Origin: Fimbriiglobus ruber
Lineage (GTDB): Bacteria; Planctomycetota; Planctomycetia; Gemmatales; Gemmataceae
Assembly: GCF_002197845.1 (NCBI RefSeq)
Contig: NZ_NIDE01000008.1
Coordinates: 372,001 to 436,000 of the forward strand
Direction: 5' to 3'
DNA: 64,000 nucleotides
In this document: positions 37,188 to 52,155 of the stretch, piece after piece
Numbering within the stretch: position 1 is the first letter of the stretch
Layout of the letters: each line of letters opens with the position of its first letter
Position numbers and translations under genes: made by a program
The notes under the pieces: generated by a model
What the model was told of the DNA's origin: nothing
Seen by the model: the letters and a program-made list of their open reading frames with translations, nothing else
Databases searched by the model: none

Positions 37188-38704
37188 GGGTGTGTTCAAA
37201 GTTTGTCGGTAGGTTTTTACGCGGCCAACGTTTTGGGGGTTGCCGCCGGTCGTGTCCTCGGGTGGGTGGCCCAGAACCCGTCCCAGAACGCGGGGCCACT
37301 TTGGTAGATGGCCCGCAACGCGGCGACGGCCGCGGCCCCGTTCACCGTCCACCGCATCCCGGCGCCCTTCAACCGGGCTCCGACGACTTTACACCCGGCT
37401 TCCGTCGGTCCACTCCCGAGGTCGTACCCGGCCGCACGGTACGCCGAGTAATCGGTCCGGTGAAGGGTTCCGTCGAAGTACCCGAGGAGTAATCGCCGGG
37501 CCTCGTCGGCCGCGTCCCCCGACGGCAACGGCTGGTCCCGAATCCACGCCACGAACCCGGCCCCACCGCGGTCGTACAACGTGCCCTTGGCCCGGTCCAC
37601 CCACGACTCCCGCGTGGCCTCGTCGGCCCACACCGCCCGGGCATACGTGTGGAGGTGTTCGACCGCGTGATACCAGTCCAGGATGCACAACAACCCGTCG
37701 TCGAAATGCCGCCGTAATCCGGCTTCCAACCCGTTCCCGGCGTCCGACACCGCGATCACCCGGTCGACGCGGCCGAACCCGCGGGCAATGGCCCGCTGAC
37801 GCAACCCCGCACACACCTGGTCGAGGTTCCAATCCGTCACGTACTCGGTCCCCGTCTTGTCCGGCGTGTACACCAGCCCGATGTACAGCATCCGGCTGTC
37901 CGCCTGCGTTCCGTCCGGGTGTTGGATCGGGACGCGGAACGCATCCAACCCGAGATACCCGATCGTCGTCGTCTGGTCCGGGGCGGTGAAATCCCAGGCC
38001 GGTTGGGGCGGGGACGGGACCACCACGCTCCCCGCCCGGGTCCGGGCGATCCACTCCTGGCCGGCCCGCTCGGTCGCCCGCCAGACGGTCCCGGCCGACA
38101 CCCGCCGACCGGCGAATCGGCGGAGCAAGTCGTCGGCCCCGTCGGCGAACGAGGCCAGCACTCCGGCCAAGGTGACCAACGGCCGGAACCCCGGGCTGAG
38201 GGCGTCGGCTTGCAGCCCCAGGGTGGCGTCGGCCGGACACGTCCCGGTCTGACACGCCCGGCAGTGGTAGTACGCTCGGGACACGTCGACATCCCCGGTC
38301 AAGGTCACGATCCGGCGGGACCGCCAGGCGTGGAACCGGGCGTCCGCCCGGCACTCCGGGCACACGATGCTCGACCCCTGGTACCCCCTTTTTTCCGGGC
38401 CTCGAGCCCGGTCTGGTGGGCCGTCGTGGCCAGGTCATGGGCGGCGTCCCGGAGCCGATACTCGATGTCCCCGAACAGTTCGGTGTCCGGGCGATCGACC
38501 AACTGCTCGGCCATCCGCCGGAGAGCGTCCTCGGCCGCCGGGCGGAGTTGGGTCAGAAGAGCCTCGATACGGGCGTGGCGGTCGGGAGTCGGAGACATGG
38601 TGCCCATCCTGGTCGGAATGTCCGGCCCGGTCACGAGTTCGGGCCGCTTCCCCGAACGTACCCGACACCCATCCATTTTGCACCCACTAACTTGGAACAC
38701 CCCC
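37188..38704 (-). mobile_element. ISKra4-family insertion sequence (1,517 bp)
   Basis: The ends are imperfect terminal inverted repeats: 37188-37206 against the reverse complement of 38686-38704, matching at 16 of 19 positions. A 9-bp direct repeat (CCAGTCGCC) flanks the element, so it entered by transposition and both ends are intact. One transposase gene fills it. It sits between the transglutaminase-like gene and the large amidohydrolase, which are divergent, and lies 92 bp before the amidohydrolase start, so it may affect that promoter. Confidence 0.85.
37217..38607 (-). CDS. ISKra4-like transposase, two overlapping frames joined at an A6G5 run
   Basis: The N-terminal frame runs from ATG 38607 (MGTMSPTPDRHARIEALL) and the main frame from about 38390 to 37217. 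The main part has a CPEC...CRAC zinc motif, catalytic-core strands IGYLGLDAF and VIAVSDAGNG, LDWYHAVEHL, and GSGPTEAGCKVVGARLKG with the catalytic Glu, typical of ISKra4. The frames meet at the plus-strand run C5T6 (38384-38394), A6G5 in the mRNA. A -1 slip there gives one protein of about 463 residues. This may be programmed frameshifting, as in several IS families, or another missing base. Confidence 0.8.
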
Positions 38705-43075: not shown

Positions 43076-45181
43076 CTAATCCACGTACGCCCCAAAAATC
43101 CTCACGTTCATTTGGTTTAAACCGGTGTAATTCATTCCATTTGCGGTCACATCGCAGGTATCCACAAACAACCCGCCCTCAGGCTTGGGCCATTTCAAGA
43201 CGAGTTTACCGCCCGGCGATAGGGCCCACGTGGATTCGCCATCTTCTGTGTTGATCTTTCCGTTGGAATAAAATGAACTTACTCCGAATGGTCCGTTACC
43301 CGCCCGGTGTCTCCACCGTGCGACGATCTTCACCGTGCTCGTGCTGTTCAACTCGGCCCGCATGTTGCCCGCGCTCGGCTCGTCTTTCGAATTCGCCTTG
43401 TCGGCCAGGGCGTCGAACGCCGCTTTCAGCTTCGCATCGGCAGCGTTAATCTCGAAGAGGTAATCCTGCGTGTGCGGTCGCATGAGCTGGGACCACGGCA
43501 CCAAGCCTTTCTCGTTGAACCTCTTGCGTTCTACTTTGACTGTTTCGAGCACGGAGCCAGCAAGGGTGCGGGTCTCCTTATCGAAGCTCTGGGTCATCTT
43601 CGTCTCGGCGGCCTTGACTTCCTTCGCGTGGGTGGCACGTGCCGCTTGCCACGGGGATTTGTGTTCGACCGGGACCGGGGGCATCACTTTCGATATCGGG
43701 GCCGCCGGGCCGCGCGTTTGAAACACCCCGGCCGCCCAGAGGGCGAGTCCCCCGAAGAGCGGTACCACGGCGGCCATGCCCGCCCAGAGCCAGAGCAGCG
43801 AACTTCCCTCGGGCTTCTTGCCCCGTCCCTTTCGCCGGACCTCGTGGTCCGACACATCCGGGGCGCCGGCATCGCTCCATTGTGCGTCGAATTCTTTTGC
43901 GGGGGACGCCAAGACCTGCGTGGTGTCGGGGGCGACCGGCGTCGCCGTTGAAGTCGGTCTGACGAATTCCCCGGGGTAATGGACCGGTACGGGCGAACCG
44001 TTCAAGTTAACGGGCGTTGCTGCGGGAAGCGGGTAACCGTTCAAGTTAACAGGCGTTGCCGCGGGAAGCGGGTAACCGTACCCCACGACGTTCGGGACCA
44101 CCACCGGCGTCCCGCTCGGAGCCACGGGCGTCGTCGTCACCGGCGTCGGGGACGCATGACCGACCGTAGCTCCGTTGACTGCCTCGACGTTGATGTCTTC
44201 CTCGTCGGGAACGGGCACGCGGGCTACCGCTACCGGATCGGGTTTCGGCTCGGGCACGGGAACCGAAAAGGTGGTCGGGGTAAGCACGTCGGACAGCAGG
44301 CGGACATCTTCCAGCCGGCCGCGACTCGCGTCCGCCAAGGCCCCGCACAGGCGGCGCAAGGTTTCGTCTTTGGACCGGCTCAGCTCCTCGATGAGCGGCG
44401 ACCGGCCCGGGTCGGCGAAGTCTTTTTGCTGGAATAAGACGTTCACGGAGTTGTCGTACCGCTTCCAAATCTCGTCGCCGTATACCACCATCCCGCGCAG
44501 TCCGGTCGCGATGGCAAGTAGGGAAAACCGGTCGGCCGCGGGGCCGTAGTAGCCGCTCGTCACGCGCTCCGGGTGCTGGTAATCGGGGTGACCGAATTCC
44601 TGCGGCGGATCCTTGTCCAGCGCGGGCACCCACATGCCGTCGTAGTCGACCAGCCGCACCGACAGTTTGCGGCCGTCGTTGTTGGGGATCAGCAGGATGT
44701 TGCCGTGCTGCAAGTCGCAGTGCCCGACGCTGCTGGCGTCCAGGCGGTCGCCCATTTTCGCCAGGATCTGAATCAGGTTCTGCAGCACGTCCGGCCGCGC
44801 GGTCATCGAACGGGCGAACTCGTTCAGGCGGATGCCGTCGACCCACTGCATCCGCACCAGCGGGTACCACTCGTCGTTCAGCCAGATGCCCTGTGATTGG
44901 TAGGCGAAATCGACCGTGAACGGCAGCTGGAGTTCGCTGAGGACGTCGTGGACCGCTTGATACCGCGGCTCCAGGTGGGCGATCGGCCGGGTAAAGCACT
45001 TGACGGCCGCTTTCTCCGTCCCGCAGGTAAAGCAATAGACGTCGGCGTTGGAGCCGGAGCGGGCGAGCGGGACGCCCTGGGAATCCGTCTCGGGCCGGCC
45101 GGCGGACAGGTCGGGATCGCGGAGACTGAATTGCGGGTTCTGGACCGCCTCGTTGATCTCCGCCGGCGTCGGCCAACTCAT
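43076..45181 (-). CDS. Membrane-anchored protein kinase of a TerY-P-like triad
   Basis: A 701-residue protein. Residues about 40-330 form an atypical protein kinase: SGSNADVYCF in place of the Gly-rich loop, Lys in AAVKCF, catalytic loop HCDLQHGNIL (His-x-Asp...Asn) and DYDG for DFG. A Pro/Val-rich linker with two copies of a 13-residue repeat (NGYPLPAATPVNL) leads to a membrane segment (LWLWAGMAAVVPLFGGLALWA, about 475-500). The outer C-terminal part has a helical region then a beta-rich end (STWALSPGGKLVLKWP). The gene follows PP2C and vWA genes (gap 19 bp; AGGAG before its ATG), the set known as the TerY-P triad, though known triad kinases are mostly soluble. Probable role: phosphorylation signalling with the phosphatase. 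Confidence 0.82.
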   Translation of the reverse strand: MSWPTPAEINEAVQNPQFSLRDPDLSAGRPETDSQGVPLARSGSNADVYCFTCGTEKAAVKCFTRPIAHLEPRYQAVHDVLSELQLPFTVDFAYQSQGIWLNDEWYPLVRMQWVDGIRLNEFARSMTARPDVLQNLIQILAKMGDRLDASSVGHCDLQHGNILLIPNNDGRKLSVRLVDYDGMWVPALDKDPPQEFGHPDYQHPERVTSGYYGPAADRFSLLAIATGLRGMVVYGDEIWKRYDNSVNVLFQQKDFADPGRSPLIEELSRSKDETLRRLCGALADASRGRLEDVRLLSDVLTPTTFSVPVPEPKPDPVAVARVPVPDEEDINVEAVNGATVGHASPTPVTTTPVAPSGTPVVVPNVVGYGYPLPAATPVNLNGYPLPAATPVNLNGSPVPVHYPGEFVRPTSTATPVAPDTTQVLASPAKEFDAQWSDAGAPDVSDHEVRRKGRGKKPEGSSLLWLWAGMAAVVPLFGGLALWAAGVFQTRGPAAPISKVMPPVPVEHKSPWQAARATHAKEVKAAETKMTQSFDKETRTLAGSVLETVKVERKRFNEKGLVPWSQLMRPHTQDYLFEINAADAKLKAAFDALADKANSKDEPSAGNMRAELNSTSTVKIVARWRHRAGNGPFGVSSFYSNGKINTEDGESTWALSPGGKLVLKWPKPEGGLFVDTCDVTANGMNYTGLNQMNVRIFGAYVD

Positions 45182-45200
45182 TCCCAGACTCCTTGGGCGT

Positions 45201-45953
45201 TCAGACGCGGATGGCCATCAGCGTCGTGTCGTCGTCTTTCAATTCGCCGGAAGCCCGCAGGTTCAACACGGCCCTGGCGTATTGCTCTTCGGCGCGGGGA
45301 GACTCGATCAGGCTCAGTAACCATTGACACGGGTTCTCGGCCGCTTCGAGCCGGGCGAGGAACCAGCACGCGAGCGCGTCGGTCATCAGAAAAAGGTGAT
45401 CCCCGGACCGCCAGTCGCCCGTGACCGCGCCCGTGGCACTCGCGCAGTCCCCGCCCCGCGAACCGAGCAGGGCGGGCGTATTGTTGAACTGGGAGGAGTG
45501 CGTGAGGGGCCACGCGGTCCGCAACCGCCCGCCGCGCATTTTGAACACGCAGACGTCGCCGGTCCCGACGGCGAACCAGTGCCCATTCTTCCGGTCGTCG
45601 ATCGACAGCGAGAGGCCGAGGAAGGCGGCGAACGCGCCTTGTTCGCGGCGCTCGGAGACGAACCACGGCACGTCCACCCCGTCGACGGCGGCGGACCAGT
45701 CGGCGCGGCGGACGGCCAGCCAGTCGGCGGTCAGTTTGGCCGCCCCCGCGTGTCCCGCGTGCGCGTAGCCTTCGACCAGCAGCCGCGCCCACAGGCCGGC
45801 GAACGCGCTTTGCGTCGCGCCGTCGGCCACGGCGAAACGGCCCTGGTCGGGGTTCGCCGCGACCGCGTCTTCGTTTTCGTCCGGCGCCGCCTCCGATTTG
45901 GGCGCCGTCAGGGTGCGCCAGAAGGGCGGCGTCCACGCACTTCGCGTACTCAC
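45201..45953 (-). CDS. PP2C-family protein phosphatase of the TerY-P-like triad
   Basis: A 250-residue PP2C-type phosphatase starting at GTG 45953, which overlaps the vWA stop (GTGA, 45950-45953). Metal-ligand motifs are recognisable: Glu/Asp in DENEDAVAAN, VADGATQSAF, a GDVCVFKMRGG core strand, LFLMTDALACW and DDDTTLMAIRV at the end. The motif-I Asp-Gly and late Asp-Asp agree with a metal-dependent Ser/Thr phosphatase. It is about the size of the stand-alone triad phosphatases and would oppose the kinase coded immediately downstream. Confidence 0.85.
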   Translation of the reverse strand: MSTRSAWTPPFWRTLTAPKSEAAPDENEDAVAANPDQGRFAVADGATQSAFAGLWARLLVEGYAHAGHAGAAKLTADWLAVRRADWSAAVDGVDVPWFVSERREQGAFAAFLGLSLSIDDRKNGHWFAVGTGDVCVFKMRGGRLRTAWPLTHSSQFNNTPALLGSRGGDCASATGAVTGDWRSGDHLFLMTDALACWFLARLEAAENPCQWLLSLIESPRAEEQYARAVLNLRASGELKDDDTTLMAIRV

Positions 45954-46795
45954 GGTTTCGGTCCGACCTGGGTCTGGGTACCGATGTCGAGAAACTGCAC
46001 GACGCCGGACAGGTCGGCATTGTAGCCGAAGCCCCGCGACCCCGCCGTGACGGGGAGCAGCAGCTGGCGGGCGAACGCGAGCATGGTCTCGGGCAGCGGG
46101 CTCGACATCCGGAACAACAGGCGGGCGAATTTGTCCCACGCCTCGTCCTCGACGGCCGGGTACTGAATCGTGCCCGTCGACTCGGCACTGATGTGCAAGT
46201 TGAATAGCAGCGTTTCGCCGTCGGACGACGCGACCTGGCAAAGTCGTTTCGCGTAGGGCCGCGGGTCGCCGTCGTTCGGGATGCCGTCGGTGATGTTCAG
46301 GACGATCGGCGGGTAGCAGTCCGGGTATTCGTTGACGAACATCCGGGCCATCCCTTCGGCCAACCGCAGGGCGGCGCACATGGGCGTCTTGCCGTCCGCG
46401 ACCGGGTCGACCCAGACGGGCCACTTGATCCGCCGCTCGACGAGTTGGCCGGTGGGGGCTTTCACCTGATCCACCGTCTCGACCATCCGCAAGGGGTGGG
46501 CGTTTAGCTCGGACACGCCGACCAGTGGTTTGCCGACCAGCGGGCCGGCGAGGGCCGGCCCGGCGTCCTGGCCGTACCGGACCATGCCGACGTAAAAGCG
46601 ATCCTTGAGGTTCCTGTTCGCGCTGACGGACTTCAGGCAGATGTTCCGCAGGACGCGGTTGACGGCGTCGGCCACGCCTTCCGCGAGCGTCTTCCCGGTC
46701 CCGTTCGGCGGCACCTTGCTCATCGAGCCGGACTGGTCCAGCAGGAAGATGAAGCAGGCGGGGGTGGTACTGGTGATCCGAACCGAGTAAGGCAT
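45950..46795 (-). CDS. von Willebrand factor A protein, TerY-like
   Basis: A 281-residue protein starting at ATG 46795 (GGGAG six bases before it). It is a single vWA domain with a full MIDAS site: FLLDQSGSMS near residue 20, Thr in GKTPMCAAL and Asp in LNITDGIPNDGD. No signal peptide or membrane segment is seen, so it should be cytoplasmic, as TerY is. First gene of the three-gene unit vWA-PP2C-kinase, with 4-base overlap to the phosphatase. TerY proteins are linked by genome context to tellurite-type stress systems; no terZABCD genes are in this window. Confidence 0.85.
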   Translation of the reverse strand: MPYSVRITSTTPACFIFLLDQSGSMSKVPPNGTGKTLAEGVADAVNRVLRNICLKSVSANRNLKDRFYVGMVRYGQDAGPALAGPLVGKPLVGVSELNAHPLRMVETVDQVKAPTGQLVERRIKWPVWVDPVADGKTPMCAALRLAEGMARMFVNEYPDCYPPIVLNITDGIPNDGDPRPYAKRLCQVASSDGETLLFNLHISAESTGTIQYPAVEDEAWDKFARLLFRMSSPLPETMLAFARQLLLPVTAGSRGFGYNADLSGVVQFLDIGTQTQVGPKP

Positions 46796-46973: not shown

Positions 46974-47268
46974 GAAAGCACTCCGGGCTGAAGGGGAGAC
47001 CCGCAGTATAACGGAACCCGCGGCCAGTTTTGACAAAGAAAAATAGCGGGCGGGCGTTCGTGGGCTGCTCCGAATTTTTGTTATCTCACCGGGCCGCCCG
47101 TTCCAACTGACCCGCGGTTGTCTCCCATGTTCATACTGGGATTTTTGGAGATCACCGAAAAGTGGGGCCACAAAATCCGATGAAAAATTGATCCGGGCAA
47201 GGAGGGTAGTGACGGTCGGTTCCCGAAAGGGTACCATCGTTTCCGTCTCACTCCTGAGAGAGTTGCCC
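46974..47268. other. Divergent intergenic region between the triad and the giant kinase
   Basis: This gap must hold two divergent promoters. On the minus strand TATACT (47005-47010) is a good -10, but the nearest -35-like TTGTCA is 20 bp away. On the plus strand TTGACA (47030-47035) lacks a -10 at 17 bp. The kinase frame is open from 47188, but the sense part starts at 47269. Confidence 0.4.
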
Positions 47269-50200
47269 ATGTCCGCCCCGGACCCTCTTGAATCGCGCCC
47301 CACCGCCTCCTGGCCCGACCGCGTACCGGACCGGGTGATCGTGCCCGTCCCAGGGCCCGGACCGGCGCAAGTAGGCGCCGACGTTGATGAGAACCGCGAC
47401 ACGATCGGCATGCCGGTCGATCCCGACCCCGTCACCCGGACCCACAACGAGAATGACGCCCCGGCGGGCGATCCGGCCACCCGCACGAATTCCTTTCCGG
47501 CGACCAGCTCGTCCGTTCCCGACGGCGTGCCGGACATTCCTGGTTACGCGGTCGAGGCTGAGATTGCCCGGGGTGGGATGGGGGTGGTTTACCGGGCCCG
47601 GGACCAGCGTCTCAACCGCCCGGTCGCGATCAAGATGATCCTGGGCGGGAAGTACCACGACCCAGCCGCCCGGGTCCGGTTTCTGATCGAGGCCGAGGCG
47701 ATCGCCCAGCTCGACCACCCGAACGTGGTGAGCGTCTACGAATTCGGAACACACGACGATCTTCCCTTCTTCGCCCTGGAATACGTCGGCGGTGGAACCC
47801 TCGCGAGCAAACTGGCCCAGGACGGAAAGCCAGCACCACTAGCCGCGGCGGAACTGCTGGTGAAGTTGACCGACGGGATTCGGGAAGCACATGCCAAGGG
47901 GATTGTTCACCGGGACTTGAAGCCGTCGAACGTGCTACTGACCGCGACCGGAGAGCCCAAGATCGCGGATTTCGGCATCGCGAAGGTCGGGCAGTCGGAC
48001 ATGACGGCGACCGGGGCGGTCATGGGCACCCCGAGCTACATGAGCCCCGAGCAGGCAGGCGGGCGGACGCGGGAGGTCGGGACGCCGACCGACGTTTATG
48101 CACTCGGGGCCATTCTTTATGAAATGCTGACGGGCCGGCCGCCATTTCTGGGCGAATCGTCGATGGCGACGATCCAGCAGGTTCTGAACCAGGAACCAGC
48201 CCGGCCGCGGACCATCAACCCCGAGGTCTCCCGCGACCTCGAAACCATCTGCCTCAAATGTCTGGCGAAAGACCCCAAACAACGGTACGGATCGGCGTCG
48301 GAACTCGCTGCGGATCTGAAGGCGTTCGTGGCCGGGAAGCCCATTGCGGCCCGTCCGGTGGGCATCGTGGAACGCGCCTGGAAGTGGACCCGACGGCACC
48401 CAGCCAGAGCGATCGGGATGGCGGCCGGGATCTGCCTGGCGATTGGACTCGCGGTAGCGGGGTACGAAGTCCACAAGCAACGCGAAGCTGACCGGCAAGA
48501 AGTCAACGAACGGATGAACCGGAATGATGAGGCTGTGACCGCACTACTTGACCAGTGCGAGGCGGCGCTAAAGGACGGAGATGCAAGCCGAGCCAGCGTT
48601 GCCGTCGATGCAGCCGAGAGGCGGGCGGTCGAAGGAGGTGTGGACCACCTATCGGAGAGAATCGACGTACTCCGAGCCAATGTCGCTTTGTTAAAAGATT
48701 TGGATGCGGTAGACCGGTTTCGGTCAACCAGAAAAGGTCTGTTTGAAGAATCGAATAAAATCGTCGCAAGATATCGAGAAGCGCTAAAAAAATTCGGCGC
48801 CGATCCAAATGATGTCGCGCCCGAAGCGGCGTCGACAAAAGTGTCTGAGACCAAAGTCAAAGATCGGCTGGTGGTTGTCTTTGACTATCTTCTAGGCGAG
48901 GAAAAGAATAGCGAGGTTCTCGCGACATTAAAATTGATCGATCCTGACGCATTTCGCGATGCCGTTCGAGATGCGGTGCAGCAAGGAAACTCCCAAAAAA
49001 TTGATGAGTTGGCGAATCGTCCAGCCGCCCTCGATCAATCACCGGGCTTTACAATTTTTATGATCGAACGCATGTCTTCGGGCGAAGAGCGTCGGCGAGA
49101 ATTGTTTGAAGCAGTAGCTTGTAAGCGGCCGCGAGATTTAGGATTATTAATTGCCTCTGGTAGTGTAAATTTAGATGACGATGAATATTCGCCAGATGAG
49201 CAGCTGCGATGGTATCAGGCTGCGGCTTCTATAGTGCCTGAGAGTTCTCTAGCACATAAAATGTTGGCAGAAATACTCACACGAAAAGGCGATCGGAATG
49301 GCGCTATTATTCAGTTTCGAGAAGCAATTCGACTTGATCCACAAGATTGGACTAATCATTCCTCATTGTCAGAGCTTTTAAAAAGCAGTGGCGATGTGGC
49401 GGCATCAGAAACTGAGCGCAAAATGTCTAAAAAACTGGAAATGGATCAATATGGAAATAAGACGATATTAAAATTGTCAGATATTTATATGGATTATAGA
49501 CCTTGGGATATTGATAATGAGTATCTAGATGGTGTTATTAAAAATTTACATAAATTAATACACGACAATCCAGACAATGCAGTCGCTCAGAAAAATATGG
49601 GCAGAATAATGCATGCACTAGAAAATCAAGATGCTGCAATTGCTTCTTTCCATGCTGCAATAAAATCGGCGCCGAACGATGTAATTACGCGGGTTATGTT
49701 AGCTAGGGCACTTTCAAAAAAAGGATCACGAATCGAGGCGATTGCAGAATACGACGCTGCCATTTCCCTTGAACAAAAAGAGCTTTCACTCCGCATCGAA
49801 CTCGTAAAAGAATTGATGGCTTCTGCCAATAATTTGCGGGCCGTGATTGAGTTGCAAAAAATGGTCAAACTTGACCCGAAAGACGAAGGAGTACTAGAGA
49901 AGATCTTGGAAGTTGGAGGGGATTTAAGTTGGGCAACAAGTGCGTACCAAGAAGCCATACGATTAAATCCTAGTGAGCATTTGTGCCATCTACATTTGGC
50001 GACGATATTCGCCAAAAAGAATGATTACAAATCGGCTATTGCTGAATATCGAGAGGCAAATCGGCTTGGGCCGAGCAATGCTGATATTTGCATACAATTT
50101 GGGCAATCGCTTGAAAAGGGTGGCGATCGGCAAAGTGCGATTGCTCAGTATCGCAAGGCCGTTCAGCTAAATCCAGCTTTTTCGAAAATTCCAGAATTGA

Positions 50201-52155
50201 TGAAGAACAACAAAAGCAACTTAAATTGGATTATTGAAGAATACCAGAAAGCAATTTACGCGTCTCCAAGAAAAATAAAAATCCGATCAACATACGCGGA
50301 GATCCTTGAAGCCCAAGGAGAACTTGACCTTGCAATTAAAGAATATCAACAGATTGTCTCTTTTAACGTCTGGAATTCAACAATTAGGCTTAGACTAGCA
50401 AGCCTCTTATTAAAAAAGGGCGAGCTTGTTTGGGCAATCGCAGAATGCCGCGAGGCATATCGGTTGGATCCGGATGGAATATATCCACACACGGTCCGAT
50501 CCAGTATATATGATGCAATTATATCTAAGGCGGGCGAGCTAAACAAAAACGGCCACCGCAATGATGCAATAGTATTATATCGAGAGGCGATTCGGCTTGA
50601 TCCTACAATGTTCTTGCAAGAAGATTTGGTAAAAATTACAGAAAAACGAGATTGGGCTATTGAAGAATTCCGTAGATTAGTTCATGACCGCCTGTTGAAC
50701 ACTGATCTCGCATGGATAAATTTGGCTGGAGCATTGGAAGCAAACAATGAGCCGGATGGCGCTATTGCTGCGTATCGTGAAGCCATTCGACTACACCCGA
50801 ATGAAAGTTCAACACACAGTTTGCTTGCAAACTGCTTGAGTATTAAGGGCGATCAAGATAGGGCAATCGCCGAATATCGTGAAGCGATGCGACTTGATCC
50901 CAGAAATCGAAACTTTGGCCTAAGAGAGACTCTGGCTGAGTTGTTGAGGTCTAAAGGAGACAATTTGAAGTCACAAGGAGACAGAGGTGTGGCAATCGTA
51001 TATTATCGTGAAGCTATTCGACTTGATCCTTCTCGTTTTCTGCTAGATATCGATGAACACAAAGGCGATCTGAATTGGGCTGTCGAGGAATATCGCGAGC
51101 TCGTTCGCATCACACCAGACGACCATCGATCACGCATTAACTTCGCCATCATTTTGGCCGCCAAGGATGACCAAGCTGGAGCTATTGTTGAATACAAGCA
51201 GGCTATCCGGGTTGCTCCGAATGAAGGCTTCACTCACTATGAGTTCGCAAAATTCTTGGAGACAAAAGGTGATCAAGAAGGAGCGATTACCGAATGCCGG
51301 GAGGCTATTCGACTTAGTTCAAACGAGATTAAAGCCGATTTCTCCCGAACCCTGCTTTGCCGATTATTGAAGTCCAAGGGAGACAAATTGACGTCTGACG
51401 GCGACCTAAACAGCGTAATCGCCCTTTATCGAGAAGCCGTCAGAGTGGATGGCAAGGACAATTTAACCCACCAGAAATTGACACAACACTTGGAATCAAC
51501 AAGGGACTGGGGCGCGCTCCTAATTGTGTACCAAGAGACTATTCGACTGAATCCAAATGATATGGAGGCTAAAACCCAACTTACTCGTGCAGAGAAACTG
51601 CATCGCTTACAGAATAATCTCCCTGAGCTCTTGGCCGGTCACCAGAAATTAGCCACAGCGGCCGAGGCGTTAGAGTTCGCCCGACTATGTTCTCGAAGTT
51701 TTCCGCAACGGTATTCTGCTGCGTCGCGCTTTTACGAGCTTGCGTTTGTACGAGACCGCTCTCTTATGGCCGATCTTATCGCGGGCTATCGTTATGATGC
51801 GGCGCGATATGCAATGCTAGCCGCTAGCGGCGAGGGCTTTGATGCGCCATTCGGATCGTTCGACCAAAGAGCTTTGCGGGCCAAGGCACTAGCATGGCTC
51901 AAGGAAGACCTAGAAATTCTGAAGTTTAAAGCCGCCTCGTCCAACAAATCAGATAGACATCTGGCCGTCGCACAACTCACTCACTGGCTCGGGAACACTG
52001 ACCTGAATGAAACACGCCCTGGGATCAGGCGGGTGAAAATGACAATCGTAGAACGTCACTCCTGGGATACGCTGTGGAACGATGTCCGGGCTACTTTAAC
52101 AGTGGCGAAACAAGCACCGCCCTTGGAGGTCGCTCCTCAGCCGCGGGTGAAGTGA
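47269..52155 (+). CDS. Giant Ser/Thr protein kinase with C-terminal TPR array
   Basis: A 1,628-residue protein from ATG 47269 (MSAPDPLESR). Residues about 90-355 are a Hanks-type kinase: ARGGMGVVYRARD, AIKMIL, HRDLKPSNVLL, ADFGIAKVG, GTPSYMSPEQAGG and DVYALGAILYEML. A membrane segment (IGMAAGICLAIGLAVAGY, about 383-402) follows, so the kinase is inside and the rest outside. The remaining 1,200 residues carry roughly 20 TPR-like units of the AIAEYREAIRLDP type. Base composition changes abruptly: the kinase part is very GC-rich, while from about 48700 the DNA is AT-rich (only 14 G or C in 49441-49500). The reading frame stays open and the repeat motifs are intact, so the gene seems functional. 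Confidence 0.88.
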   Translation: MSAPDPLESRPTASWPDRVPDRVIVPVPGPGPAQVGADVDENRDTIGMPVDPDPVTRTHNENDAPAGDPATRTNSFPATSSSVPDGVPDIPGYAVEAEIARGGMGVVYRARDQRLNRPVAIKMILGGKYHDPAARVRFLIEAEAIAQLDHPNVVSVYEFGTHDDLPFFALEYVGGGTLASKLAQDGKPAPLAAAELLVKLTDGIREAHAKGIVHRDLKPSNVLLTATGEPKIADFGIAKVGQSDMTATGAVMGTPSYMSPEQAGGRTREVGTPTDVYALGAILYEMLTGRPPFLGESSMATIQQVLNQEPARPRTINPEVSRDLETICLKCLAKDPKQRYGSASELAADLKAFVAGKPIAARPVGIVERAWKWTRRHPARAIGMAAGICLAIGLAVAGYEVHKQREADRQEVNERMNRNDEAVTALLDQCEAALKDGDASRASVAVDAAERRAVEGGVDHLSERIDVLRANVALLKDLDAVDRFRSTRKGLFEESNKIVARYREALKKFGADPNDVAPEAASTKVSETKVKDRLVVVFDYLLGEEKNSEVLATLKLIDPDAFRDAVRDAVQQGNSQKIDELANRPAALDQSPGFTIFMIERMSSGEERRRELFEAVACKRPRDLGLLIASGSVNLDDDEYSPDEQLRWYQAAASIVPESSLAHKMLAEILTRKGDRNGAIIQFREAIRLDPQDWTNHSSLSELLKSSGDVAASETERKMSKKLEMDQYGNKTILKLSDIYMDYRPWDIDNEYLDGVIKNLHKLIHDNPDNAVAQKNMGRIMHALENQDAAIASFHAAIKSAPNDVITRVMLARALSKKGSRIEAIAEYDAAISLEQKELSLRIELVKELMASANNLRAVIELQKMVKLDPKDEGVLEKILEVGGDLSWATSAYQEAIRLNPSEHLCHLHLATIFAKKNDYKSAIAEYREANRLGPSNADICIQFGQSLEKGGDRQSAIAQYRKAVQLNPAFSKIPELMKNNKSNLNWIIEEYQKAIYASPRKIKIRSTYAEILEAQGELDLAIKEYQQIVSFNVWNSTIRLRLASLLLKKGELVWAIAECREAYRLDPDGIYPHTVRSSIYDAIISKAGELNKNGHRNDAIVLYREAIRLDPTMFLQEDLVKITEKRDWAIEEFRRLVHDRLLNTDLAWINLAGALEANNEPDGAIAAYREAIRLHPNESSTHSLLANCLSIKGDQDRAIAEYREAMRLDPRNRNFGLRETLAELLRSKGDNLKSQGDRGVAIVYYREAIRLDPSRFLLDIDEHKGDLNWAVEEYRELVRITPDDHRSRINFAIILAAKDDQAGAIVEYKQAIRVAPNEGFTHYEFAKFLETKGDQEGAITECREAIRLSSNEIKADFSRTLLCRLLKSKGDKLTSDGDLNSVIALYREAVRVDGKDNLTHQKLTQHLESTRDWGALLIVYQETIRLNPNDMEAKTQLTRAEKLHRLQNNLPELLAGHQKLATAAEALEFARLCSRSFPQRYSAASRFYELAFVRDRSLMADLIAGYRYDAARYAMLAASGEGFDAPFGSFDQRALRAKALAWLKEDLEILKFKAASSNKSDRHLAVAQLTHWLGNTDLNETRPGIRRVKMTIVERHSWDTLWNDVRATLTVAKQAPPLEVAPQPRVK

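What the first reader, a model, noticed from the sequence alone, without database searches (positions are those of the whole stretch)
43076..46795. TerY-P-like triad with a membrane-anchored kinase and outer domain
vWA, PP2C and kinase genes follow in that order with 4-base overlap and a 19-bp gap, the arrangement published for TerY-P triads. The kinase has a membrane segment near residue 485 and a 200-residue outer C-terminal region, not a usual feature of that family. With no ter genes nearby, this may be a transmembrane stress-signalling variant specific to planctomycetes.
Basis: partly seen in the sequence, partly recalled or inferred. Interest (0 to 1): 0.6.

Follow-up and report, generated by a model that had tools for sequence, protein, structure and literature searches.

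The report
Membrane-anchored kinase version of TerY-P triad
This is a three-gene kinase, phosphatase and metal-binding-protein switch of a type already tied to phage defence, but here the kinase is threaded through the membrane with a small domain on the outside, and related bacteria carry the same kinase with quite different outside parts.

Summary
vWA (45950-46795), PP2C (45201-45953) and kinase (43076-45181) lie head to tail on the minus strand, with a 4-nt overlap and a 19-nt gap. All three match the PADLOC TerY-P models (TerY 6.9e-75, PP2C 5.6e-34, STK_OB 2.7e-66). The kinase matches only the catalytic half of STK_OB. Its C-terminal OB domain is replaced by a Pro-rich linker, a basic stretch, a membrane segment (461-487) and a 214-residue tail. 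The tail models well (pLDDT 89) as helices plus a small beta barrel; its relatives are secreted planctomycete proteins, so it is probably extracytoplasmic.

A hydrophobic segment after the kinase is common in the relatives sampled: 45 of 47 planctomycete and 32 of 42 other kinases. The planctomycete branch is marked by mostly single-span, C-out kinases with exchangeable ectodomains (WD40, FGE-sulfatase, LamG/PA14, abhydrolase-like, this barrel); kinases 62-69% identical can carry unrelated ones. Planctomycete kinases in general are mostly membrane proteins of this design (PMC11032199). Verdict: a TerY-P triad recast as a receptor-kinase module, a new variant of a known kind. Ligand, substrate and any phage role are untested.

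The parts
45950..46795 (-). TerY-like vWA protein, 281 aa, first gene
   Evidence: PADLOC TerY 6.9e-75 over 1-275; MIDAS residues intact; 35-45% identical to vWA proteins of other triads
45201..45953 (-). PP2C phosphatase, 250 aa, GTG start overlapping the vWA stop by 4 nt
   Evidence: Pfam PP2C_2 2.5e-6 above cut-off, PADLOC PP2C 5.6e-34, metal-binding motifs present
43076..45181 (-). Ser/Thr kinase, 701 aa, third gene
   Evidence: PADLOC STK_OB 2.7e-66 over profile positions 1-295 of 562 only; start preceded by AAGGAG
44270..45181 (-). Cytoplasmic kinase domain (residues 1-304)
   Evidence: AlphaFold2 pLDDT 93.5; Foldseek best PDB matches all protein kinases, E 6.7e-9; catalytic K61, D156, N161, D179
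43816..44269 (-). Pro/Thr-rich linker with a repeated GYPLPAATPVNLN unit, ending in the basic stretch RRKGRGKK (449-456)
   Evidence: direct reading of translation
43721..43801 (-). Membrane segment, residues 461-487
   Evidence: hydropathy 1.94, six Arg/Lys in the 15 residues before and two after
43079..43681 (-). Predicted extracytoplasmic domain (residues 501-701): four helices plus a seven- to eight-stranded beta barrel
   Evidence: AlphaFold2 pLDDT 89.2; homologues are secreted planctomycete proteins

Best explanation
It is a stand-alone TerY-P triad built as a single-pass receptor kinase. Shown by sequence: a vWA with an intact metal site, a PP2C and a kinase with intact active sites, co-encoded; the kinase domain is followed by a linker, basic stretch, membrane segment and a folded domain whose relatives are secreted. 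Inferred: the kinase domain sits in the cytoplasm and the helical plus beta-barrel domain in the periplasm; a ligand or envelope change there (for example damage, or phage adsorption or entry) alters kinase clustering and activity; the kinase phosphorylates itself and/or the vWA protein, which acts as metal-dependent scaffold or output; PP2C resets the switch. Relatives tune the input by swapping the outer domain on a conserved kinase.
For: PADLOC matches to all three TerY-P proteins. Conserved order in 43 of 70 relatives, no other order. Reciprocally, most vWA relatives in related genomes lie within 10 kb of such a kinase. Membrane segment in 45 of 47 planctomycete relatives, positive charges mainly on the kinase side (28 vs 5, p 1e-4). 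The tail's homologues carry signal peptides (by eye) or are fused to secreted-type hydrolases. Same kinase type with unrelated ectodomains: L038 vs L063 kinases 69% identical, LamG/PA14 vs FGE-sulfatase tails with no similarity; also 62-64% pairs. Periplasmic location of WD40 and sulfatase-modifying domains in planctomycete kinases is predicted in PMC11032199.
Against: The window segment is only moderately hydrophobic (400 of 10,000 shuffles). No dedicated topology predictor was available. Ligand, substrate and phosphotransfer are unknown. 13 of 34 planctomycete kinases with upstream sequence have neither partner nearby, so some work outside triads. No defence island was recognised around the window triad.
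Confidence: 0.62

Rival explanations
1. It is an anti-phage TerY-P defence module like the tested ones, and the membrane tail merely places it at the envelope, where phage injection is sensed.
For: Same three families as the defence system (PMC7699616, PMC10889362). Patchy distribution: vWA in 10 of 41 Gemmatales-centred relatives and 3 of 246 genomes across the phylum, absent from both same-genus genomes at hand. In G003 the orthologous amidohydrolase locus lacks the triad, which lies elsewhere.
Against: The OB or zinc-ribbon domain of the defence-linked kinases is missing. No other defence genes recognised around the triad; the PADLOC matches of the 47188 kinase reflect generic kinase models. 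Ectodomain variety fits sensing of many cues at least as well. The same-genus genomes are 86-87% complete.
Confidence: 0.35
2. It is a general planctomycete-style membrane Ser/Thr kinase for housekeeping or environmental sensing, and the vWA/PP2C are its ordinary regulators; no link to defence.
For: 70-80% of planctomycete kinases are membrane proteins with periplasmic accessory domains (PMC11032199).
Against: Its kinase groups with the TerY-P kinase family and not with ordinary Hanks kinases: STK_OB 222.6 bits versus Pfam Pkinase 26.8, under the Pfam cut-off. Distribution is patchy.
Confidence: 0.3
3. The hydrophobic stretch is not a membrane span and the tail is a cytoplasmic ligand-binding barrel (Cap15, a cyclic-dinucleotide receptor barrel, is among weak fold matches).
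For: Moderate hydropathy and 4% shuffle rate; Cap15 Z 7.5.
Against: Z 7.5 is in the range of common arrangements; basic residues precede the segment; homologues of the tail look secreted.
Confidence: 0.1

Closest known systems
TerY-P anti-phage system (Gao et al. 2020; PADLOC TerY, PP2C, STK_OB)
   Same: All three proteins match the PADLOC models; same gene set (PMC7699616, PMC11090510)
   Different: The kinase lacks the C-terminal OB half of the STK_OB model and has a membrane segment plus outer domain instead; no phage test exists
TerY-P triads of Type II and III-A CoCoNuTs (PMC11090510)
   Same: vWA, PP2C, kinase set
   Different: Those kinases end in a zinc ribbon and sit with McrBC-type nucleases; none recognised here
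Planctomycete membrane Ser/Thr kinases with periplasmic WD40, TPR or FGE-sulfatase domains (PMC11032199)
   Same: Cytoplasmic kinase, single span, varied periplasmic domain
   Different: This kinase belongs to the TerY-P kinase family, scores under the Pfam Pkinase cut-off (26.8 vs 31.7), and comes with vWA and PP2C

Membership tests
TerY-P triad | TerY-like vWA protein | tested here: met
   PADLOC TerY 6.9e-75 over nearly the full length
TerY-P triad | PP2C phosphatase of the triad | tested here: met
   PADLOC PP2C 5.6e-34; Pfam PP2C_2 above cut-off
TerY-P triad | Kinase of the TerY-P family with intact active site | tested here: met
   STK_OB 2.7e-66 on the kinase half; catalytic residues conserved; kinase fold
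TerY-P triad | Three genes adjacent and co-directional | tested here: met
   4-nt overlap and 19-nt gap
TerY-P defence system, STK-OB form | C-terminal OB fold on the kinase | tested here: not met
   STK_OB profile matched only 1-295 of 562. The tail model is four helices plus a small barrel related to secreted proteins; fold search gave no clear relative, so no claim is made on fold absence
TerY-P defence system | Protection against phage | not testable with these tools
   needs experiment
Single-pass receptor kinase | One membrane span with cytoplasmic kinase and external domain | tested here: inconclusive
   Hydropathy, positive-inside charges and secreted homologues agree; no topology predictor or experiment

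The most novel reading that the evidence does not exclude
Planctomycetes have turned the TerY-P switch into a repertoire of receptor kinases in which the same kinase, phosphatase and vWA core is fitted with interchangeable outer sensors, giving a surface-facing, rapidly retooled alarm for phage or envelope attack.
Probability: 0.25. Interest if true: 0.7.

Novelty: new variant of a known kind. Interest (0 to 1): 0.42.

Why it matters
How TerY-P modules sense infection or stress is unknown. A form whose sensor is a separable outer domain would make the question testable: swap or delete the ectodomain and see what activates the kinase. Family surveys based on Pfam's Pkinase cut-off would miss this kinase, and annotation as 'STK_OB' would assign it a domain it does not have.

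Tried and rejected
Planctomycete-only membrane anchoring: rejected as stated, since hydrophobic segments also occur in Paenibacillus, Pseudanabaena, Salinibacter/Rhodothermus, Verrucomicrobia and others. Conserved extra partner gene: all-against-all of neighbours found none except ordinary kinases and shadow ORFs. Identifying the tail by Pfam: nothing. Fold search of the tail: Foldseek no match at E 0.001; the second look gave Z 10.6 to the C-terminal barrel of a GH43 arabinanase over 79 residues and many de novo barrels, read as a common small-barrel arrangement. Plasmid search with the vWA found only two cyanobacterial plasmids. Single-linkage clustering of ectodomains was chained together by WD40 and Pro-rich parts and was not used. 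The kinase tree places the window kinase on a long branch within the planctomycete group (support 90, open fork), so its exact sister is unknown. The 2012 and 2020 founding papers are not held, so statements about them rest on PMC11090510, PMC7699616 and PMC4978471.

Full report
Observation. The minus strand of the window carries vWA (45950-46795), PP2C (45201-45953, GTG start) and kinase (43076-45181), with a 4-nt overlap (GTGA) and a 19-nt gap, exactly as reported. The kinase start has an AAGGAG in front of it.

Identity. Pfam recognises PP2C_2 above its cut-off, but the kinase (26.8 bits, cut-off 31.7) and the vWA (17 bits, cut-off 27) fall below theirs. PADLOC recognises all three: TerY 6.9e-75, PP2C 5.6e-34, STK_OB 2.7e-66. 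These are the three proteins of the TerY-P system, which is reported to protect against T7-like phages (PMC7699616) and against Autographiviridae in Pseudomonas (PMC10889362). The STK_OB match covers only profile positions 1-295 of 562. Published kinases of such triads end in an OB fold or a zinc ribbon (PMC11090510); this one does not match the OB half.

Active sites. Kinase K61, D156 and N161 (HCDLQHGN) and D179 (DYDG) are conserved through 16 relatives; the kinase domain is modelled at pLDDT 93.5 and its best PDB matches are protein kinases. The vWA MIDAS residues and the PP2C metal motifs are present. The three proteins are therefore predicted to be active; nothing was assayed.

Membrane segment and tail. 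Residues 461-487 are hydrophobic (maximum 1.94 over 19 residues) and follow RRKGRGKK. In isolation this is only moderate: 4% of shuffles of the tail reach the value. Comparison makes it stronger: 45 of 47 planctomycete kinases of the family have a segment at 1.8 or more, and among the 39 with more than 60 residues beyond it the Arg/Lys excess lies on the kinase side in 28 and on the other side in 5 (p about 1e-4), as expected for a cytoplasmic kinase. The 201-residue tail is modelled at pLDDT 89.2 as four helices followed by a small beta barrel. Its relatives in other planctomycetes are about 240-residue proteins that begin with what look by eye like signal peptides, or barrel copies at the end of secreted-type hydrolases or after a membrane segment. 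This is the best evidence that the tail is outside. No topology program was available.

Gene neighbourhood. Of 70 family kinases with at least 2.5 kb upstream, 43 have both PP2C and vWA upstream in the order vWA-PP2C-kinase and none has another order; 18 have neither. In the related genomes, 13 of 16 vWA matches lie within 10 kb of a matching kinase, and two of the other three are on a different contig from any matched kinase. The window genome has three such sets. No additional conserved partner was found.

Distribution. The vWA is found in 10 of 41 genomes centred on the window's relatives and in 3 of 246 drawn across the phylum; the kinase in 2 of 246 at E 1e-20. It is not found in two genomes of the same genus that are 86-87% complete. 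In G003 the gene orthologous to the adjacent amidohydrolase has no triad beside it, and the G003 triad lies some 460 kb away. A high-copy transposase gene lies 5 kb from the triad. This is the pattern of an accessory module, but mobility was not shown.

Exchangeable ectodomains. In planctomycete relatives the part beyond the membrane segment differs: WD40-type propellers (about 16 of 37 scanned match a propeller model), FGE-sulfatase, LamG/PA14, an abhydrolase-like domain, and in the window the helical-barrel domain. Kinases that are 69% (L038/L063), 64% (L059/L064), 63% (L067/L062) and 62% (L065/L060) identical have tails with no detectable similarity, whereas L044/L070 (96%) share theirs. 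This supports ectodomain replacement on a conserved kinase. Some short tails may reflect frameshifts or assembly errors.

Is it planctomycete-specific? Not in the simple sense. Of 42 non-planctomycete relatives, 32 have a hydrophobic segment after the kinase, in Paenibacillus, Pseudanabaena, Salinibacter and relatives, Verrucomicrobia and others. There the segments are often double, and charges lie more often on the far side (19 vs 8), which would fit a hairpin with a cytoplasmic C-terminus. The single-span, outward form is mainly planctomycete in this sample, with single-segment cases also in Pseudanabaena and Verrucomicrobia. The sample was the best 80 matches to the window kinase, so it is biased.

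Mechanism. Most likely a receptor-kinase switch: outer domain senses, kinase acts, vWA serves as metal-dependent partner or output, PP2C resets. Steps beyond anatomy are inferred. Whether the cue is phage, envelope damage or a nutrient is open.

Place among known things. Planctomycete kinases are mostly membrane proteins with periplasmic WD40, TPR or sulfatase-modifying domains (PMC11032199), so the design is familiar in this phylum. What is added is that the TerY-P family has adopted it, together with its vWA and PP2C. I found no description of this in the held literature, which is not complete. New variant of a known kind; moderate interest.

Noticed in passing
L036 3362-17345 (G000:C20, about 408861-422844): A third triad-type set in the same genome, spread over about 11 kb: vWA, PP2C, a 920-aa kinase without membrane segment, a GAP1-N2/GAP1-M protein and a weak Double-GTPase2 match. 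It looks like a GTPase/GAP1 conflict system with an embedded TerY-P set; L053 (G018) has a similar kinase.
   Followed up: partly
window 37217-38365 (-): Transposase-like gene with about a dozen near-identical copies and 96 matches in all in this genome; no Pfam match at 1e-5.
   Followed up: partly
window 47188-52155 (+): 1655-aa Hanks-type kinase with a long TPR-like repeat region; the stretch 48001-52000 is 48% GC against about 65% around it.
   Followed up: no
L139, L141, L057, L056, L140: The beta-barrel half of the window kinase tail recurs in planctomycete proteins, including at the C-terminus of esterase-like hydrolases; an undescribed small extracytoplasmic domain with no Pfam model matched.
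   Followed up: partly
L067 7-9.2 kb: Kinase tail with two lipocalin-like repeats followed by ricin-like repeats (by eye), suggesting carbohydrate-binding ectodomains in this family.
   Followed up: no
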